A stretch of 54,164 bases of DNA from a virus, in the IMG/VR virus record IMGVR_UViG_3300022208_000005, positions 1 through 54,164 of that record. One strand, 5' to 3'. Position numbers and translations under genes: made by a program. The notes under the pieces are model-generated. The model made no database searches, was not told the DNA's origin, and saw only the letters and a program-made list of their open reading frames with translations. Positions 1 to 54,164 of the stretch are shown here, one piece after another (position 1 is the first letter of the stretch; each line of letters starts with the position of its first letter).

Positions 1-1287
1 GCTGTATGTTGAACTCCAATTTATAATCTTCTTATACCTCTTGAGCTTCTTTCTCACAGCTTTAAGCTTTAGATGTATATGAGCTTCTGCTTCTGTGAAT
101 TTCTCTCTTCTTATAGGTACCCCATGTTCCTCACTTTCCTCATATACCCTAGAGGCTGGCATATAGATATGATTGAAGATCTTTTCTATTGGGGGGTCTT
201 TTCTCAATTGTTTCTTTAGTACACCATACAGCTTAAAGGTATAATAGATATCATACCCCAAGTAAGTTAGATAATTATCATAGTCTTTCTTAGTCTTTAT
301 ATTTCCTTTCTTAAGGTTTTTATCTATATCCCAATCAATAGCATTACACAGCTTAACAGCATTCTCCTTAAGGCCATTTGGTGTATTCTCATCCAAGGCG
401 TGTGATGCTAACATAGTATCGAAAGTTATTATGGGTTTAACACCAAAATGGTACCCTAAGAATAGGTCATCAAACTTACCATTCTGAGCTATTCTCTCAT
501 GAGTTAATTCTTCAAACTTTTCCACCCATAGCCTTACAAGTTTTTTCTGAGCTATCCTCTTATTACGCAAGGGGCTGTACTTCACATTTAGAGGTATGAT
601 ATATTGTACTCTATCATTACCAAACCCCAATAGGTTCACATAATCTTTAAATCTATTTAAACCAGTTGTCTCTATGTCATAGGTTAATTTTTTGTACCCC
701 TTTAATTTTAAATATCTGAAAGCTGAGTTAAGTTGTTTTAGATTAGATATAATCTTTAAGTTTAACTCTGGTAATTCTCTAGTGCTACCATTAACCATGT
801 CAGCAAAGTTATTAAAGGCCTGTATTACATAAGGGGTTTTACCAACATCTCTGTATATAATCCCAGGAGCATATGAGGCCATATATTTAAAGTTTGGCCC
901 TTCCTTAGCAATACCATTAGTTCCTGTGATAGAATCATTAGAGAAGGCTTTTAAGGCCTGTGCTCCCAATAGTAATATAAACCTGGGTTTAACCTCATTG
1001 ATTTCTTTATCTAGATGTAACTTACATTTTTTAATCTCACTAATCTTTAATTTAGTGCCATAGGGGGTTCTACATTTTATCAGATTAGTATAGTATACTT
1101 TTTCTGGGTCAATGCCAACATCCATAAGATGTGATCTTAGAGCTTTATCCATAGTAGCTTCATGGTTGTTCTCATCAATATCTTTAGCATTGGAGTTTAC
1201 TATCATGATATCTGCTCGCTTATTTCCACTCCCCGGAATACAAGGAGGAGCAGAGTGGACATATAGTCCACACTCCTTGCAAGTCAT
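1..1287 (-). CDS. Family A DNA polymerase, N-terminal part (UDG-like + 3'-5' exonuclease domains), cut by window edge
   Basis: This is the N-terminal half of the replicative polymerase; the rest lies at 52880-54164. Joined across the repeated end (134 follows 54164) it is one frame of 812 aa. The ATG at 1287 follows AAGGAG and starts 3 nt after the upstream stop. Residues 1-~190 resemble family 4 uracil-DNA glycosylase: Cys3, Cys6, Cys72 and Cys88 (16-residue spacing of the last pair as in the family), YYTNLIKCRTP and LLLGAQALKAF. The usual GE(A/G)PG and HP motifs are degenerate (VNSNAKD, ASYAPG), so glycosylase activity is doubtful. A 3'-5' exonuclease domain follows: DIETTG (Asp204, Glu206), NGKFD and YLGYD. 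UDG-like fusions are known from SPO1-type phage polymerases. Confidence 0.93.
   Translation of the reverse strand, partial: MTCKECGLYVHSAPPCIPGSGNKRADIMIVNSNAKDIDENNHEATMDKALRSHLMDVGIDPEKVYYTNLIKCRTPYGTKLKISEIKKCKLHLDKEINEVKPRFILLLGAQALKAFSNDSITGTNGIAKEGPNFKYMASYAPGIIYRDVGKTPYVIQAFNNFADMVNGSTRELPELNLKIISNLKQLNSAFRYLKLKGYKKLTYDIETTGLNRFKDYVNLLGFGNDRVQYIIPLNVKYSPLRNKRIAQKKLVRLWVEKFEELTHERIAQNGKFDDLFLGYHFGVKPIITFDTMLASHALDENTPNGLKENAVKLCNAIDWDIDKNLKKGNIKTKKDYDNYLTYLGYDIYYTFKLYGVLKKQLRKDPPIEKIFNHIYMPASRVYEESEEHGVPIRREKFTEAEAHIHLKLKAVRKKLKRYKKIINWSSTYS
8..133. repeat. Terminal redundancy, left copy (126 bp, identical to 54039-54164)
   Basis: Bases 8-133 are identical to 54039-54164. The copy lies inside the polymerase gene, whose reading frame continues correctly when 134 is placed after 54164, so it marks circular closure of the assembly or a permuted genome. 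Bases 1-7 do not match the corresponding bases 54032-54038 and would replace a conserved part of the polymerase. Confidence 0.95.
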
Positions 1288-1289
1288 AA

Positions 1290-2036
1290 CTAAAATACTC
1301 CTTGTATATCTTTGTTGTACACATGTAGTGAGAAGATAGTATGTGTGAACATTCCAGGTGTGTAACCAGTTTTATCAGCTACATAATTAAGCAGCTTCAT
1401 GGCAAGATATACATCATTAGGGAAATGGGTAGCATAATCACAGCTTCTCATGATGTAGTGTATATTAATCTTACCTTCCCTTACTTGGAAATTATAACCC
1501 AGTGAGCAGGGAACTCTTGACATGCCACCCATGTTCTGTGGGTCTTTGTTTGGGTCCCATAGAGACAACCAAGTCTGCCTAGAGTCTGGGTCATTCCTAA
1601 GTCTTTTGATTATGCCCCATAGTTGATCTTTCCAGTTAATGCGTTCATTATATGAGTAAGCAAACTGTCCTTCATGTAAGAACTCACTCCATATGCTATC
1701 TCTAAGTAGATAAGCTCTTCCAGGATTAATATACTCCATGTTTTTATGGTATTCTTCTATAGGCCCATTCCTTATATCTAGGCTGTCTGGGATAAATGAT
1801 TGATCTACCCTTTCTTCAAATTCAGCATCGGCCCAAGGTTGTGTTACTCTTGGTACCTTCTTAGGGTCACAATCAAGAATACGATAAGAGTAATCCTGTA
1901 GCTCTTTAGTGAAGTAATCTTCATTACCCTCTATGTTTTTGTCCTGCATTGACTTAGGCTTTACTAGTATACCCATCTCACTAATATCTCTTTTGATTTC
2001 CTCAAACGCCTCTGTTGCTGATACATAAAATCTCAT
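1290..2036 (-). CDS. Thymidylate synthase-family protein, predicted dCMP hydroxymethylase
   Basis: 248 aa. The start chosen is the ATG at 2036, after GGGAGG and overlapping the upstream stop (TAATG). Family hallmarks: nucleophile Cys177 in RVPCSLG, the RSCD phosphate-binding motif at 197-200, and His238-x-Tyr240. From the Cys to the final Tyr the spacing equals that of E. coli thymidylate synthase without a gap. The residue at the position of E. coli Asn177, which selects dUMP, is Asp208. Asp there marks T4 dCMP hydroxymethylase (Asp179). Predicted reaction: 5-hydroxymethylation (or methylation) of dCMP with methylene-tetrahydrofolate. A pyrophosphatase and a dNMP kinase lie just upstream. 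dTMP synthesis is the alternative. Confidence 0.82.
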   Translation of the reverse strand: MRFYVSATEAFEEIKRDISEMGILVKPKSMQDKNIEGNEDYFTKELQDYSYRILDCDPKKVPRVTQPWADAEFEERVDQSFIPDSLDIRNGPIEEYHKNMEYINPGRAYLLRDSIWSEFLHEGQFAYSYNERINWKDQLWGIIKRLRNDPDSRQTWLSLWDPNKDPQNMGGMSRVPCSLGYNFQVREGKINIHYIMRSCDYATHFPNDVYLAMKLLNYVADKTGYTPGMFTHTIFSLHVYNKDIQGVF

Positions 2037-2233
2037 TAGTGTTGTCCTCCCTGGAATAGTGAAGTATGGCACCCACAGATGGGGCACCTAGTTTTGAATT
2101 TAATAATATAATAACACAAGTATGCTACTGATACAACTCCAGCCGTTAATAGTCCTAAAGTGAATATCAACCAATTAAAGCTAGTTTTCCTAGGAGATAC
2201 CCACTGCTTACATTGTTTACAATATCTAGACAT
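2036..2233 (-). CDS. Small membrane protein with zinc-ribbon halves on both sides of a TM segment
   Basis: 65 aa from the ATG at 2233 (AAAGGA 8 nt upstream). A CKQC pair near the N terminus and a CPIC pair near residue 50 flank a hydrophobic stretch of about 25 residues (LIFTLGLLTAGVVSVAYLCYY). This knuckle-membrane-knuckle layout recalls LITAF-type proteins, where two half zinc ribbons meet at the membrane face. It sits between the 249-aa unknown and the hydroxymethylase, translationally coupled to the latter. Function unknown. Confidence 0.7.
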   Translation of the reverse strand: MSRYCKQCKQWVSPRKTSFNWLIFTLGLLTAGVVSVAYLCYYIIKFKTRCPICGCHTSLFQGGQH

Positions 2234-2237
2234 AACA

Positions 2238-2987
2238 TCATCCTTTCTCAAAGTGATCTTTGATTGACAAAGACTCTATTGGTATAGCCGGGAACTTCTC
2301 AATCTTAAAATATAAATGTTGCATTCTCTGTAGTGCTTTGTAGCTGTGAATTTGATCTACTGTTTTGAAGAACCTTTCATAATTACTCATTAGCGACTTG
2401 TGCCAGGGGTGTTTACTTTTGCTTATCCCCTTTCTTGGTATACCAAAGAAGTCGAAGTAACCATTTATAAACATACCCGAACAGTAGATCTGATTAAAGT
2501 AGAATGCTATATCATCAATCTGACAACACTCAGGTAGTTCATTTATGAAGTGGTGTACCAGAACTAAGTCTGCTGCAAACCTTCTTTGAGATTCAGAGGT
2601 CCTCCAGTTCATATTGATCTTAGTCCAGGGGCCCTTCCTTTTCTTTCTGGTGATTACTACATTTAGTAAACAAGAGCCATTGTTTACCTGTTTCTGTTTA
2701 AAGTAGTAAGTCAATGACATACCCGAAGCTTTTGATAATTTAGCCTTGAATTGTTCTAATTGTTCCCAGTCAATGTAGGTTCTAAGTAGATGTGGCCATT
2801 TACCAGACTTATACCCAAACATGCCTAGATCAAGTGAGCATTTATGAGACTCACAAGTTAATAATACATTATCATTGTATCCCTGGATAGATTGGGTATA
2901 GGTTATATACTCATCAGGGTTCTCAAGAAACCCTTGGTTTAATTTCAGGAACAACTCATCTAGGTCTTTGTAGTGCTTAACCAACAT
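2238..2987 (-). CDS. Unrecognised 249-aa protein in the nucleotide-modification cassette
   Basis: I do not recognise this family. The protein is soluble, rich in aromatic residues and Lys, and has a central stretch with paired basic residues (TRKKRKGPW), several Cys (near 45, 50, 105 and 155) and a GYFDFFGIPRKG motif around 180. Its start overlaps the stop of the pyrophosphatase gene (TAATG), so the two are translated together. Position between pyrophosphatase and hydroxymethylase suggests a role in nucleotide or DNA modification, but that rests on context alone. Confidence 0.75.
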   Translation of the reverse strand: MLVKHYKDLDELFLKLNQGFLENPDEYITYTQSIQGYNDNVLLTCESHKCSLDLGMFGYKSGKWPHLLRTYIDWEQLEQFKAKLSKASGMSLTYYFKQKQVNNGSCLLNVVITRKKRKGPWTKINMNWRTSESQRRFAADLVLVHHFINELPECCQIDDIAFYFNQIYCSGMFINGYFDFFGIPRKGISKSKHPWHKSLMSNYERFFKTVDQIHSYKALQRMQHLYFKIEKFPAIPIESLSIKDHFEKG

Positions 2988-3637
2988 TAGTACTTGCTGC
3001 CTTGTCTAAAAGCATTAACCTGTGATTTCTTGAGATACACATTGGCTATATCTTCTGCTGGCATATTTGCAGCCTTAAAGAAAGTAAAATACTTAATCCA
3101 TACCTTAGACAGTTGTTCTTCGAAAGCCTTTACATCAGTTAGCATCTGACTTTGTTTCCATGGCTTATTCTTAAGCGTATTACACATCATTCCAAGTTCT
3201 TGGATGAACTCCTGAACATACATCCCATTCCAATAACCCTTTATGCCATTTGTTTGGGATAATAACAGATCCAGATAGTCATAGCCTTCTCTGGGATATA
3301 TGTCTAATATATCATCATGGTCCCAACCACATAGTAGAGTAAGTTCTGTTAAGAAGTGTAGGCCGTCTACAAGCTCTTCTTTGAAGTGTTCACTAATACC
3401 AGTATGTTCTAAAGCGTCAATTGCCTCCCCTAGCTCTTCTGTGATTCTCCAAGCAAAGTCCTTAATCCTAGCTTGTGACTTTTTACAGTTCAGATTAAGG
3501 GGGTTATCCTCCGTTTGACAAAGACCCGATAATGACTCAATGGGGTGGTACTTAACCATGAGTTCCCTCTGTCTGTCAAATATAGCTTGTAGTCTGTCAC
3601 CCGTTATCTCCTCATCTAATGCGTGTGTAATGTTCAT
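2987..3637 (-). CDS. All-alpha NTP pyrophosphatase (dUTPase/MazG-like, possibly dCTPase)
   Basis: 216 aa. The metal-binding pattern of all-alpha dUTPase/MazG enzymes is visible: EELGE around residue 70 and EELVDGLHF about 25 residues later (ExxE...ExxD). These enzymes hydrolyse dUTP or dCTP to the monophosphate and PPi. In T4 the related gp56 removes dCTP and dUTP so that only modified cytosine enters DNA. Here the gene lies directly upstream of a predicted dCMP hydroxymethylase and overlaps the dNMP kinase by 4 nt, so dCTPase/dUTPase activity is a reasonable inference. Substrate cannot be read from sequence. Confidence 0.8.
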   Translation of the reverse strand: MNITHALDEEITGDRLQAIFDRQRELMVKYHPIESLSGLCQTEDNPLNLNCKKSQARIKDFAWRITEELGEAIDALEHTGISEHFKEELVDGLHFLTELTLLCGWDHDDILDIYPREGYDYLDLLLSQTNGIKGYWNGMYVQEFIQELGMMCNTLKNKPWKQSQMLTDVKAFEEQLSKVWIKYFTFFKAANMPAEDIANVYLKKSQVNAFRQGSKY

Positions 3638-4152
3638 CTTTTGCCCTCCTCATAAGTTTTGATAATGTCTTCCACTAAGGTTTCTAAACTGCTGTTTTTA
3701 TAATTATATATCACTGTGTTCCAACCTTTATAGGTTAGTTCTTGATATACATTATCACATTGCTTTAATAGCTGTACTTTCTTATCTATAACTCCGGGGT
3801 ATTGTTCTCTATCGCCAAAGTTAAAAATAAATTGGTCTGGTATTCTAGTATAGATAATGTAGGGGTTTTGATTTTTCACAGACTCTACTACAAGATCATT
3901 GAAGCTAAATTTCGGTGTATCTCTTAATACATTACCATAGACCATTTCTTCTATGAAAGCAAAACGATCATATAGCAGTATGGTATCTTTAGTATTCTTA
4001 TTAAGTTGACTAAGCATCCACTGCTCTTGTTCAAATTTGCTTAGTGGTCCGGGTGATTTACCAATTACACTCACATCAGGTAATAATGAGGCTAACTCAG
4101 CAACAAGTGTAGTCTTACCAGTGTTATCCATTCCGGTACAGATAATAATCAT
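3634..4152 (-). CDS. Deoxynucleoside monophosphate kinase (thymidylate kinase-like)
   Basis: 172 aa P-loop kinase. Residues 7-14 read GMDNTGKT, the Walker A motif of thymidylate kinases; LLYDRF near residue 60 supplies the DR motif. Predicted to phosphorylate dTMP and/or a modified dNMP to the diphosphate, the job done by gp1 in T4 for hydroxymethyl-dCMP. It overlaps both neighbours by 4 nt and so belongs to one translational unit with the pyrophosphatase and the upstream zinc-finger gene. Slightly short for a thymidylate kinase (about 200 aa). Confidence 0.82.
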   Translation of the reverse strand: MIIICTGMDNTGKTTLVAELASLLPDVSVIGKSPGPLSKFEQEQWMLSQLNKNTKDTILLYDRFAFIEEMVYGNVLRDTPKFSFNDLVVESVKNQNPYIIYTRIPDQFIFNFGDREQYPGVIDKKVQLLKQCDNVYQELTYKGWNTVIYNYKNSSLETLVEDIIKTYEEGKR

Positions 4153-11188: not shown

Positions 11189-11734
11189 TTATAATCCTAG
11201 GTTAGTACAAATCTCGGTAAGGCCATTCTCAAAGCCATCACCCAAGGCAGCAAACTTCCATTCTCCATTATGTCTGTACATCTCACCGATGATAACACCA
11301 GTCTCAATACTGTAATCCTCAGATAGATCATATCTAAGCATCTCCTCATTGGTTACCTTGTTCACAACTCGGATGAAGGCATTTTGTACTTGTCCGAAGT
11401 TCTGTCTTCTGGACACAGCATCATAAATATTCACAATAAATTTAAGCTTGTGAACATCCTCTTGTATCTCAGGTAGATTGATGAAGATTTGTTCGTCATC
11501 CCCATCTCCTTCACCTGTGAGGTTATCACCAGAGTGTTTTACCCCAGGGGCAGATTGTTTACCAAAATATACAAGAGTAAGGCCCTTGTCATTTTCATCC
11601 ACTAGAGCAACCGATGCGTCTAGATCAATGGATACACCATTTCCAACATCCCAACCCAAGCCTATTGTTACCTCTGTCATACCTGGTGCTGCTTTTGTTA
11701 AATCTACCTTTTGTCCTTTTACTAAGTTTACCAT
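11189..11734 (-). CDS. terD: TerD-family protein (tellurium resistance/stress family)
   Basis: 181 aa, full length for TerD. Family features: N-terminal LVKGQKVDLTK, IGLGWDV, DLDASV, then GDGDDEQIFINL (Asp cluster that binds Ca2+ in the family) and NFGQVQNAFIRVVN. TerD proteins are cytosolic Ca2+-binding beta-sandwich proteins tied to tellurite, phage-resistance and stress phenotypes. No other ter genes lie nearby. The gene has its own promoter and a strong terminator, so it is an independent, probably well-expressed early unit. The role in this phage is not known. Confidence 0.9.
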   Translation of the reverse strand: MVNLVKGQKVDLTKAAPGMTEVTIGLGWDVGNGVSIDLDASVALVDENDKGLTLVYFGKQSAPGVKHSGDNLTGEGDGDDEQIFINLPEIQEDVHKLKFIVNIYDAVSRRQNFGQVQNAFIRVVNKVTNEEMLRYDLSEDYSIETGVIIGEMYRHNGEWKFAALGDGFENGLTEICTNLGL

Positions 11735-20697: not shown

Positions 20698-20847
20698 ATG
20701 TTAAATATGAAAGAGCTTAGAGAGTATATCAGGCTATTCTTAATGTGTATCATAGACTGTGGTTTCAATCTTAAAGAATCCCACAATATAGCAATGTTAT
20801 TCTATAAGGAGGTTCCACCATGGAGAGACCAAGTAGAGATCAAGTGA
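20698..20847 (+). CDS. Small 49-aa protein
   Basis: ATG 7 nt after AAGGAGGAG. MLNMKELREYIRLFLMCIIDCGFNL is a helical, partly hydrophobic start. Its 3' end carries the ribosome-binding site of the dCMP deaminase and overlaps it by 28 nt, so it may act as a coupled leader gene. Not recognised. Confidence 0.6.
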   Translation: MLNMKELREYIRLFLMCIIDCGFNLKESHNIAMLFYKEVPPWRDQVEIK

Positions 20848-21236
20848 ATATGGAGATAGCCTTCACAATGTCAGGTAGATCTACATGTATGAGAAAGCAA
20901 GTAGGTGTAGTGATTGTCAAAGACAATAGGATTATAGCAACAGGGTATAATGGGGTAGCATCAGGAAGACCACACTGTACAGAATGCGAGGGTCCTGGAT
21001 GCAGCAATTCAATGCACGCAGAGGCTGGTGTAATATCATTCTGTGCTAAGCATGGTATTGCTCTTAAAGATTCTACCATGTATGTAACCATGAACCCATG
21101 CGAAGCATGTGCTAATCTTATTATTAACTCAGGAATCAAGGAAGTGGTATTCCTAGAACAATATAGATACTCAATAGGAATACAATTATTAGAATCAAGT
21201 GGTATAAAAGTTAGGAGGCCAGAACAATGCAAATAG
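20820..21236 (+). CDS. dCMP deaminase
   Basis: 138 aa. Cytidine/deoxycytidylate deaminase motifs: HAEAGVISF (zinc His and catalytic Glu, about residue 68) and TMNPCEACANLI (zinc Cys pair, about 96), plus RSTCMRKQVGVVIVKD near the start and an additional HCTEC zinc site, as in T4-like dCMP deaminases. Converts dCMP to dUMP, feeding dTMP synthesis. In this genome dCMP is also the predicted hydroxymethylase substrate, so this enzyme sits at a branch point. Start: ATG after AAGGAGG. Confidence 0.93.
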   Translation: MERPSRDQVNMEIAFTMSGRSTCMRKQVGVVIVKDNRIIATGYNGVASGRPHCTECEGPGCSNSMHAEAGVISFCAKHGIALKDSTMYVTMNPCEACANLIINSGIKEVVFLEQYRYSIGIQLLESSGIKVRRPEQCK

Positions 21237-52870: not shown

Positions 52871-52899
52871 ATTATACCATTAGTATTTCCCCAAGTCAA
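52871..52899 (-). promoter_or_regulatory. Promoter for the nuclease/Sak4/SSB unit
   Basis: Minus strand: -35 TTGACT (52899-52894), 17-bp spacer ending TAATGG, -10 TATAAT (52876-52871). Overlaps the polymerase stop at 52880. Confidence 0.85.
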
Positions 52900-54164
52900 T
52901 AGGCTTAATGCCAGCCTGTTTAAAGTAATCTTCCCAACCTATTGTATCTCCCCAGGCATCACCAATCTCTATATCTACTACAATTGGAATATCAGTTTTA
53001 AAATTGAATACCTCAACCAGAGCTTTTGGGTTTTCCATTATAGCTTTTACCTTAGGCACAAATTCTGATAGGTAATCTTCTTGGACCAACCATAATACCG
53101 CATCATGTACTGTGCCAATACTTACACATTTATCCCTATTAAGTTTCAATTTCTTGTGGTAGTATTTAGCGTACCCCATAGACTCTATCAGTCCTAGTAA
53201 AGTTAAATCACTACCAAAGCCTTGTACTGGGGAGTTTATGCTTTGTCTTTCTGCCTCAGCTCTCTTTCCCTGATCTGATGAGTTTATATCTGGTAATCTC
53301 CTTAATCTACCAATTAATGATCTAACCTGACCCTGTGCTTTTACTATCCTCCTTTGCCTTATATGCCAATCAGCAAGATCACCATAGGTATCAAAGAATC
53401 TAGCTCTGTATTGTTTAGCCTCAGCCTCTGTGAGTTTAATTCCATAGGTGTCCCTAGCATAATCTTTAAACTTCTTCCAACCCATACCATATAGGAACCC
53501 AAAATTAACAGCTTTAGCTTTCTTTCTTTTCTCCTTTTTAACTGCTGGGTCTTTCTCATCATTAATATCTTCTCCGGATACAATATTGTAAGTGGCATCA
53601 TGTATATCCCCACCCTCTACATATATCCTCCTCATTTCTCTTTCCCCACTCATCATGGTAGCTATCCTTAACTCAGCTTGTGAATAGTCAGCCTCCACAA
53701 ATTTCCAACCTGGCCTTACATTGCCTATTAGGGTCCTTATAGCTTTATCTCTAGGTACCTGTTGAAGGTTTGGGTCAGTACATGAAGTTCTACCTGTTAC
53801 AGTGCCATTAAGCTTGAATTTTGGGTATATCTTACCATCGAACATTCTATCTATCCAACCTTCAATAAAATGAGTAAGCTGGATTTTAATTCCACGATAA
53901 TCTAAGATTAGTTGTGCTATGGGGTGTAAATCTCTTAGTCTCATTAATGCTGATTCTGCTGTAGATGGGTTACCAGTATCAGTCTCCTCCATGACCGGTA
54001 ACTTTAACTCCTCAAATAATAATTTTCCAACCTGTTGGGTTGAACTCCAATTTATAATCTTCTTATACCTCTTGAGCTTCTTTCTCACAGCTTTAAGCTT
54101 TAGATGTATATGAGCTTCTGCTTCTGTGAATTTCTCTCTTCTTATAGGTACCCCATGTTCCTCA
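52880..54164 (-). CDS. Family A DNA polymerase, C-terminal part (polymerase domain), cut by window edge
   Basis: Continues the gene at 1-1287. Motif A VEADYSQAELRIA (catalytic Asp), motif B KAKAVNFGFLYG (O-helix Lys and Phe), motif C IGTVHDAVLW: the second catalytic Asp is there but the usual Glu of HDE is Ala. TGRTSCTDPNLQQVP (the template grip) and ERQSINSPVQGFGSDL are also standard. Together with the exonuclease and UDG-like domain it gives an 812-aa replicative polymerase. The sequence at the right edge (TQQVGKLLFEELKLP) is the natural continuation; the first 7 bases of the window are not. Confidence 0.95.
   Translation of the reverse strand, partial: EEHGVPIRREKFTEAEAHIHLKLKAVRKKLKRYKKIINWSSTQQVGKLLFEELKLPVMEETDTGNPSTAESALMRLRDLHPIAQLILDYRGIKIQLTHFIEGWIDRMFDGKIYPKFKLNGTVTGRTSCTDPNLQQVPRDKAIRTLIGNVRPGWKFVEADYSQAELRIATMMSGEREMRRIYVEGGDIHDATYNIVSGEDINDEKDPAVKKEKRKKAKAVNFGFLYGMGWKKFKDYARDTYGIKLTEAEAKQYRARFFDTYGDLADWHIRQRRIVKAQGQVRSLIGRLRRLPDINSSDQGKRAEAERQSINSPVQGFGSDLTLLGLIESMGYAKYYHKKLKLNRDKCVSIGTVHDAVLWLVQEDYLSEFVPKVKAIMENPKALVEVFNFKTDIPIVVDIEIGDAWGDTIGWEDYFKQAGIKPIDLGKY
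54039..54164. repeat. Terminal redundancy, right copy (126 bp, identical to 8-133)
   Basis: Identical to the left copy. Either assembler overlap of a circular or permuted genome, or true redundancy. Confidence 0.95.

What the first reader, a model, noticed from the sequence alone, without database searches (positions are those of the whole stretch)
1290..4152. Predicted cytosine-modification cassette: dCMP hydroxymethylase + dCTPase-like + dNMP kinase
The thymidylate-synthase homologue aligns with E. coli enzyme from Cys177 to Tyr240 without a gap, and its residue at the dUMP-selecting Asn177 position is Asp208. Asp there is the hallmark of T4 dCMP hydroxymethylase. Upstream, overlapping by 1-4 nt, lie an all-alpha NTP pyrophosphatase (like T4 gp56) and a dNMP kinase (like gp1). 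Together these are the three steps T4 needs to replace dC. The predicted product is hydroxymethyl- or methyl-cytosine DNA. I find no glucosyltransferase and the 249-aa partner is unrecognised, so a new modification is possible.
Basis: partly seen in the sequence, partly recalled or inferred. Interest (0 to 1): 0.8.

Follow-up and report, generated by a model that had tools for sequence, protein, structure and literature searches.

The report
Phage cytosine-replacement operon, two TS-fold enzymes
This phage carries a five-gene operon that very probably makes a modified form of cytosine for its DNA, and the previously unrecognised 249-aa protein in it is a second, very divergent member of the thymidylate-synthase family that, wherever we searched for it, comes together with the first.

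Summary
The 248-aa protein (1290-2036, -) is a thymidylate-synthase (TS) homologue with catalytic Cys177 and Asp208 at the dUMP-selecting Asn177 position, in register with T4 dCMP hydroxymethylase. A gp56-like pyrophosphatase and a thymidylate-kinase-type dNMP kinase lie upstream in a coupled operon.

(1) Asp at 177 marks cytosine specificity, not hydroxymethylation. The solved protein with the best profile match, AfhB (RB69/HY126), also has Asp there, but its PDB entries call it an FAD-binding dCMP hydroxylase. This family keeps Trp80 and Asp169 (79/79 each), which AfhB lost, so a folate-type dCMP hydroxymethylase is the best call. (2) The 'unrecognised 249-aa partner' is a second TS-superfamily protein (AlphaFold pLDDT 95.5; top PDB matches AfhB, MilA, T4 dCH). 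Its Cys and Asp are invariant in 80/80 relatives. All 55 loci found through it also encode the TS homologue.

The module is widespread and occurs in cultured phages (Muddy, PMBT14, Triscuit), where the partner is annotated 'hypothetical'. I infer it acts after, or together with, the first enzyme on cytosine nucleotides. Its chemistry and the final base are untested.

The parts
1290..2036 (-). TS-D: Asp177-class thymidylate-synthase homologue, predicted folate-type dCMP 5-hydroxymethylase (248 aa; Cys177 codon 1506-1508, Asp208 codon 1413-1415)
   Evidence: PF00303 1.8e-20; T4 gp42 alignment; residues in 79 relatives; AlphaFold pLDDT 93.3, VIA Z 22.7 to MilA and AfhB
2036..2233 (-). 65-aa protein with CxxC pairs and one hydrophobic segment, between X249 and TS-D, coupled to TS-D by TAATG
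   Evidence: no significant family match
2238..2987 (-). X249: second, divergent TS-superfamily protein (249 aa; Tyr71, Cys106, Arg129, Asp140 match E. coli Tyr94, Cys146, Arg166, Asn177->Asp)
   Evidence: AlphaFold pLDDT 95.5/pTM 0.92; Foldseek top hits AfhB, MilA, T4 dCH, TS; VIA Z 15.3; hhalign with negative controls; C106 and D140 80/80
2987..3637 (-). all-alpha NTP pyrophosphatase, gp56-like, predicted dCTPase (216 aa)
   Evidence: PF08761 4.9e-10; phrog_12184 7.5e-39 and phrog_173 2.4e-12; T4 gp56 matches phrog_173 best; family present in 79/84 loci
3634..4152 (-). thymidylate-kinase-type dNMP kinase (172 aa), predicted to phosphorylate the modified dCMP
   Evidence: phrog_761 8.6e-15, same family as RB69 ORF045c; kinase in 51 loci, usually just upstream of the pyrophosphatase
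20820..21236 (+). dCMP deaminase, distant from the operon but part of the same nucleotide economy
   Evidence: phrog_174 8.2e-54; a dCMP deaminase family lies near TS-D in 30 loci
1..1287 (-). one part of the phage family A DNA polymerase gene, directly downstream of TS-D; the rest is at 52880-54164 because the contig is circular
   Evidence: 126-bp identical terminal repeat

Best explanation
The operon replaces deoxycytidine in phage DNA. The gp56-like pyrophosphatase removes dCTP and yields dCMP. TS-D, using methylene-tetrahydrofolate, converts dCMP to 5-hydroxymethyl-dCMP. X249, a second TS-fold protein that keeps the Cys nucleophile and the cytosine-reading Asp but not the partner-subunit Arg pair or Trp80, acts on the same cytosine ring as a separate, later step (most likely elaborating the 5-hydroxymethyl group) or as an accessory catalyst. 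The thymidylate-kinase-type enzyme and host kinases raise the product to a triphosphate for the phage family A polymerase. Shown by computation: the gene set, the Asp177 class of TS-D, the TS fold of X249 with conserved Tyr/Cys/Arg/Asp, and the one-way dependence of X249 on TS-D. Inferred: folate use, hydroxymethyl product, dCTP specificity, the substrate and chemistry of X249, the final base.
For: TS-D: Asp at E. coli 177 in 79/79, Trp80 79/79, Asp169 79/79, Arg126 79/79, Ser167 79/79; Arg plus Ser there mark deoxyribo- over ribo-substrates in the MilA study (PMC5175136). No C-terminal tail, as in T4 dCH, whose very short tail cannot seal the site (PMC6400193). MetaGPA found Asp177 TS homologues on environmental contigs selected experimentally for modified cytosine, co-occurring with a pyrophosphohydrolase and dCMP deaminase (PMC8670742). 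Microbacterium phage Triscuit encodes an ordinary TS (Glu58/His147/Asn177) right beside a TS-D, so TS-D is unlikely to be its dTMP synthase. X249: pLDDT 95.5 model, best PDB matches all TS superfamily, led by dCMP/CMP-acting enzymes; hhalign 82% to TS-D and 72% to AfhB against at most 0.3% for four controls; Cys106 and Asp140 the only columns invariant in all 80. 55/55 loci found through X249 encode TS-D. An AsnB-like amidotransferase is present in 4 X249-lacking records and absent from 16 others tested.
Against: The PDB sequence with the best match to the TS-D profile is AfhB (7e-22), a dCMP hydroxylase by its entry title, ahead of TS; T4 dCH is not among the 60 listed. The catalytic Glu58 cannot be placed: one alignment puts Glu72 there, another does not, and Muddy-type TS-D has His at that column. 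Residues R174, C177, S178 and E72 lay in the search patterns, so their conservation is partly selected. No glycosyltransferase or other known decorating enzyme was seen among the families listed for the window (25 of 28 shown, structural genes only sampled). No assay or mass spectrum exists.
Confidence: 0.6

Rival explanations
1. X249 is not a separate enzyme but the second subunit of a TS-D:X249 heterodimer. TS enzymes are dimers whose active sites borrow Arg126/Arg127 from the other subunit; X249 lacks that Arg pair, so TS-D Arg153 would complete the X249 site.
For: X249 has no conserved Arg at the strand matching SRR; TS-D Arg153 is 79/79; adjacent coupled genes in most loci; 55/55 X249 loci have TS-D.
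Against: TS-D keeps its own site residues and occurs in records with no X249 found (8 of 12 records at E 1e-3; records may be fragments). In two jumbo phage records X249 lies far from TS-D. No fusion of the two was found.
Confidence: 0.25
2. TS-D is a dCMP methylase giving 5-methyl-dC instead of 5-hydroxymethyl-dC.
For: The N177D change alone lets canonical TS methylate dCMP (cited in PMC8670742); Trp80 is kept.
Against: TS-D ends 8 residues after Tyr240 and lacks the C-terminal tail that seals the TS site (PMC6400193); the nearest folate-type structure is MilA, a CMP hydroxymethylase.
Confidence: 0.15
3. TS-D (or X249) is an AfhB-like flavin-dependent dCMP 5-hydroxylase, giving 5-hydroxycytosine that may carry a sugar.
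For: AfhB is the best profile match of TS-D and the best fold match of X249; X249 shares the AfhB N-terminus in the profile alignment; the window kinase is of the RB69 type; Thanatos DNA has a deoxypentose O-linked directly to cytosine, and its genome encodes a 237-aa TS homologue (PMC12838424).
Against: AfhB relatives have a gap at Trp80 and Asn at Asp169 (17/17), TS-D keeps both. Relatives occur in MAGs of Lachnospiraceae and Dysosmobacter, anaerobic groups where an oxygen-using monooxygenase is unlikely (inference), though cultured carriers infect aerobes. For X249 itself this reading is open.
Confidence: 0.15
4. TS-D is an ordinary thymidylate synthase for dTMP supply and the cassette is plain nucleotide metabolism.
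For: Family models and most records name it thymidylate synthase; a dCMP deaminase could supply dUMP.
Against: Asp at 177 in 79/79; NCBIfam TS models all score far under cut-off; Triscuit carries both a true TS and a TS-D.
Confidence: 0.03

Closest known systems
T4 gp42 dCMP hydroxymethylase with gp56 dCTPase and gp1 kinase
   Same: Asp at the Asn177 position, Cys nucleophile, Trp80, Asp169, no sealing C-terminal tail; gp56-family pyrophosphatase in the same genome
   Different: no X249 counterpart known to me in T4; kinase of the thymidylate-kinase type; low identity (27% in the alignment); genes here form one coupled operon next to a family A polymerase
AfhB of phage HY126 / RB69 ORF048c (PDB 9iqu, 9iqc), dCMP hydroxylase
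   Same: Asp177 class, TS fold, top profile hit of TS-D and top fold hit of X249, same kinase PHROG nearby
   Different: lacks Trp80 and Asp169 that TS-D keeps; single TS-fold gene in the RB69 stretch read; T4-like genome with sugar genes
MilA CMP hydroxymethylase (mildiomycin)
   Same: closest structure to TS-D together with AfhB (VIA Z 22.7, rmsd 1.7), Asp at 177
   Different: Lys/Ala at two positions select ribose; TS-D has Arg/Ser; MilA has an extra C-terminal domain
MetaGPA cytosine-modified environmental phages with 5hmC carbamoyltransferase (PMC8670742)
   Same: Asp177 TS homologue, pyrophosphohydrolase and dCMP deaminase on contigs selected for modified cytosine
   Different: second-step gene there is a carbamoyltransferase; here it would be X249, which is not mentioned in the passages read

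Membership tests
dCMP hydroxymethylase (T4 gp42-like), for 1290-2036 | Cys nucleophile and Asp at E. coli 177 | tested here: met
   Cys177 and Asp208, 79/79; the cysteine was partly selected by the search pattern, the Asp was not
dCMP hydroxymethylase (T4 gp42-like), for 1290-2036 | cofactor-site residues Trp80 and Asp169 | tested here: met
   Trp116 and Asp200, 79/79 each; AfhB relatives 0/17
dCMP hydroxymethylase (T4 gp42-like), for 1290-2036 | catalytic Glu (E. coli 58, T4 60) | tested here: inconclusive
   Glu72 in one alignment, not in another; His in Muddy-type relatives; Glu75-Arg76 conserved one helical turn on
dCMP hydroxymethylase (T4 gp42-like), for 1290-2036 | dCMP to 5-hydroxymethyl-dCMP activity | not testable with these tools
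   needs an enzyme assay
AfhB dCMP hydroxylase, for 1290-2036 | loss of Trp80 and Asn in place of Asp169 (features seen in 17 AfhB relatives) | tested here: not met
thymidylate synthase superfamily, for 2238-2987 (X249) | TS fold | tested here: met
   AlphaFold pLDDT 95.5; Foldseek and VIA top rows are TS superfamily
thymidylate synthase superfamily, for 2238-2987 (X249) | Tyr94, Cys146, Arg166 core and a residue-177 equivalent | tested here: met
   Tyr71 79/80 (one gap), Cys106 80/80, Arg129 77/80, Asp140 80/80; also 7/7 cultured phages
catalytically complete TS or dCMP hydroxymethylase, for 2238-2987 (X249) | partner-subunit Arg126/127 (SRR) and the Trp80 segment | tested here: not met
   no conserved Arg at strand 91-97; the segment before Tyr71 is shortened
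gp56-like dCTPase (dUTPase_2), for 2987-3637 | family profile shared with T4 gp56 | tested here: met
   PF08761, phrog_173
gp56-like dCTPase (dUTPase_2), for 2987-3637 | dCTP as substrate | not testable with these tools
   sequence does not separate dCTP from dUTP
T4 gp1 dNMP kinase, for 3634-4152 | match to the family of T4 gp1 | tested here: inconclusive
   phrog_761 thymidylate kinase matched, phrog_139 dNMP kinase did not; T4 gp1 itself was not scanned

The most novel reading that the evidence does not exclude
X249 founds an unrecognised class of TS-fold enzyme that does new chemistry on 5-hydroxymethyl-dC nucleotides or DNA (for example Cys-assisted loss of water and addition of a nucleophile at the 5-methylene, or a flavin reaction), so that a large set of phages, cultured ones such as Muddy and PMBT14 included, carries an as yet undetected hypermodified cytosine.
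Probability: 0.4. Interest if true: 0.82.

Novelty: new variant of a known kind. Interest (0 to 1): 0.6.

Why it matters
A protein family filed as 'hypothetical' in cultured phages, among them Muddy, gets a fold, an active site and a pathway. It predicts that the virion DNA of such phages holds modified cytosine, which bears on restriction and CRISPR escape and on sequencing of phage DNA, and it can be tested by one mass spectrum on phages already in collections. It also corrects the shortcut 'Asp177 means hydroxymethylase'.

Tried and rejected
Single-sequence scan of viral contigs with X249 found nothing; the broad alignment had no conserved stretch to search with; tight sub-alignments worked. 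The first profile comparison with 16 rows gave only 7.5%; it rose to about 80% with 80 rows. I first read 12 loci as lacking X249; two jumbo records carry it elsewhere and two further records have weak matches, so 'lost in jumbo phages' was dropped. Glu72 as proof of folate use was dropped after the realignment. Gene fusions between X249 and TS-D: none. No relative of X249 by sequence in the PDB beyond a weak AfhB N-terminal match. Rfam and tRNA scans of the window: nothing. Papers on AfhB itself or on PDB 9iqc/9iqu were not found in the held library. No coordinates could be inspected, so distances in the active site of X249 were not measured.
Full report
The observation. The window is a 54,164-base virus record with a 126-bp identical terminal repeat, so probably a complete circular map; the DNA polymerase gene runs across the ends. 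On the minus strand, kinase (3634-4152), pyrophosphatase (2987-3637), a 249-aa ORF (X249, 2238-2987), a 65-aa zinc-ribbon/membrane ORF (2036-2233) and the TS homologue (TS-D, 1290-2036) follow with overlaps of 4 and 1 nt, a 4-nt gap and a further 1-nt overlap. TS-D matches PF00303 at 1.8e-20 and the pyrophosphatase PF08761 at 4.9e-10; X249 has no Pfam match and only PHROGs of unknown function.

TS-D is an Asp177-class enzyme. Alignment with T4 gp42 puts Asp208 on Asp179 and Cys177 on Cys148. Among 79 relatives from IMG/VR and phage records Asp208 is invariant. Work on T4 dCH shows this Asp reads the cytosine ring (PMC6400193), and environmental contigs selected for modified cytosine mostly carry Asp at 177 where unmodified ones mostly carry Asn (PMC8670742). 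TS-D has Arg and Ser at the positions where MilA has Lys and Ala for ribose, so a deoxynucleotide is expected. In Microbacterium phage Triscuit a TS-D (Asp177) and an ordinary TS (Glu58, His147, Asn177) are neighbours, which argues against dTMP synthesis as the job of TS-D.

Hydroxymethylase, methylase or hydroxylase. The Asp alone does not decide. PDB entries 9iqu and 9iqc are a phage HY126 TS homologue, AfhB, with dCMP and with FAD, titled dCMP hydroxylase and riboflavin-dependent monooxygenase; the 116-residue stretch printed is identical in RB69 ORF048c. AfhB is the best profile match of TS-D (7e-22). I therefore compared cofactor-site residues. TS-D keeps Trp80 and Asp169 in 79/79; 17 AfhB sequences have a gap and Asn there. 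This favours folate. The catalytic Glu58 could not be placed with confidence. TS-D lacks the C-terminal tail that closes the TS site, as T4 dCH does, which favours attack by water, that is hydroxymethylation. I hold dCMP as substrate at about 0.9 and 5-hydroxymethyl as product at about 0.7.

X249 is a second TS-superfamily protein. With a 73-row alignment AlphaFold gave pLDDT 95.5 and pTM 0.92. Foldseek against the PDB lists AfhB first (2.2e-7), then MilA, T4 dCH and TS; VIA-align gives Z 15.3 over 176 residues for AfhB and 14.0 for MilA. Profile comparison gives 82% to TS-D and 72% to AfhB, against at most 0.3% for the pyrophosphatase, the kinase and two reversed alignments; single members of each family also hit the profile of the other over the Cys-Arg-Asp stretch. 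In 80 members Cys106 and Asp140 are invariant, Tyr71 is invariant where not gapped, Arg129 is 77/80. Spacing and alignment equate them with E. coli Tyr94, Cys146, Arg166 and 177. The partner-subunit Arg pair and the Trp80 segment are missing. So X249 keeps the parts that attack C6 and read a cytosine, and lacks those that TS uses for the neighbouring subunit's phosphate grip and part of the folate site.

Linkage. 84 loci were compared: TS-D in all by construction, pyrophosphatase in 79, X249 in 72 after iteration, kinase in 51. Starting from X249 alone, 55 of 55 loci hold TS-D and 49 the pyrophosphatase. The loci include near-copies and contig fragments, so these are counts of loci, not independent events. 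On the TS-D tree X249 is fixed in one large group, nearly fixed in another and patchy in a third. Of 12 loci without X249 near TS-D, two jumbo records carry it elsewhere and two have weak matches. Four others (L049, L054, L056, L076) carry an asparagine-synthase-like amidotransferase, which was not found in the 16 other records tested. A gene that needs TS-D, while TS-D can occur with something else in its place, is what a second-step enzyme would look like; a heterodimer subunit that can be dispensed with is not excluded.

Cultured carriers. The order kinase, pyrophosphatase, X249, TS-D, then often dCMP deaminase and polymerase I, is in phages PMBT14, Almagne, Muddy, SheckWes, Triscuit and KimJongPhill, and in Polewnik with an unnamed gene at the pyrophosphatase place. 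Their X249 homologues, annotated hypothetical, match the profile (9e-19 to 2e-37) and keep Tyr, Cys, Arg and Asp in 7/7; their TS-D has Asp177. I found no report of modified cytosine in these phages in the held library, which lacks most subscription papers.

Mechanism. Shown: gene set, Asp class, fold and conserved core of X249, linkage. Inferred: dCTP is cut to dCMP; TS-D makes 5-hydroxymethyl-dCMP; the kinase lifts the product; X249 works on the same ring after or with TS-D. The window shows no glycosyltransferase among the families listed, which leaves X249 as the one candidate in the operon for a further step.

Limits. R174, C177, S178 and E72 of TS-D lay in search patterns, so Asp208, Asp200, Trp116 and Arg153 are the residues whose conservation counts as unselected. 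The models are monomers and their coordinates were not inspected. Substrate and product are untested.

Noticed in passing
L049:7693-9048, L054:7706-9019, L056:7650-9239, L076:2999-4738: Asparagine-synthase-like amidotransferase (PF00733 with GATase_7 where scanned), beside TS-D in the first three and about 2 kb from it in L076, in loci without X249; possibly another second-step enzyme for modified cytosine.
   Followed up: partly
L172, L173, L176 (two jumbo phage records of about 245 kb): X249 homologues far from TS-D, two in tandem in one record.
   Followed up: partly
L064:5892-7001: C5-cytosine DNA methylase gene directly upstream of TS-D in a locus without X249.
   Followed up: no
L182:4746-6451 (Microbacterium phage Triscuit): TS-D and an ordinary thymidylate synthase as neighbours, a natural contrast pair.
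   Followed up: yes
L098:11498-12214: Kin of RB69 ORF048c are annotated 'dCMP hydroxymethylase' or 'thymidylate synthase' in many records although the PDB entries of the HY126 homologue call it a dCMP hydroxylase.
   Followed up: partly
window 2036-2233: Small zinc-ribbon protein with one hydrophobic segment between X249 and TS-D, coupled to TS-D; role unknown.
   Followed up: no
window 11189-11734: TerD-domain protein (PF02342, 4.1e-67) on the phage.
   Followed up: no
window ends: 126-bp identical terminal repeat; the polymerase gene is split by the contig ends.
   Followed up: yes
15 loci, e.g. L016, L030, L088: Two X249 copies, mostly side by side, suggesting a paired or heteromeric X249 in some phages.
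   Followed up: no
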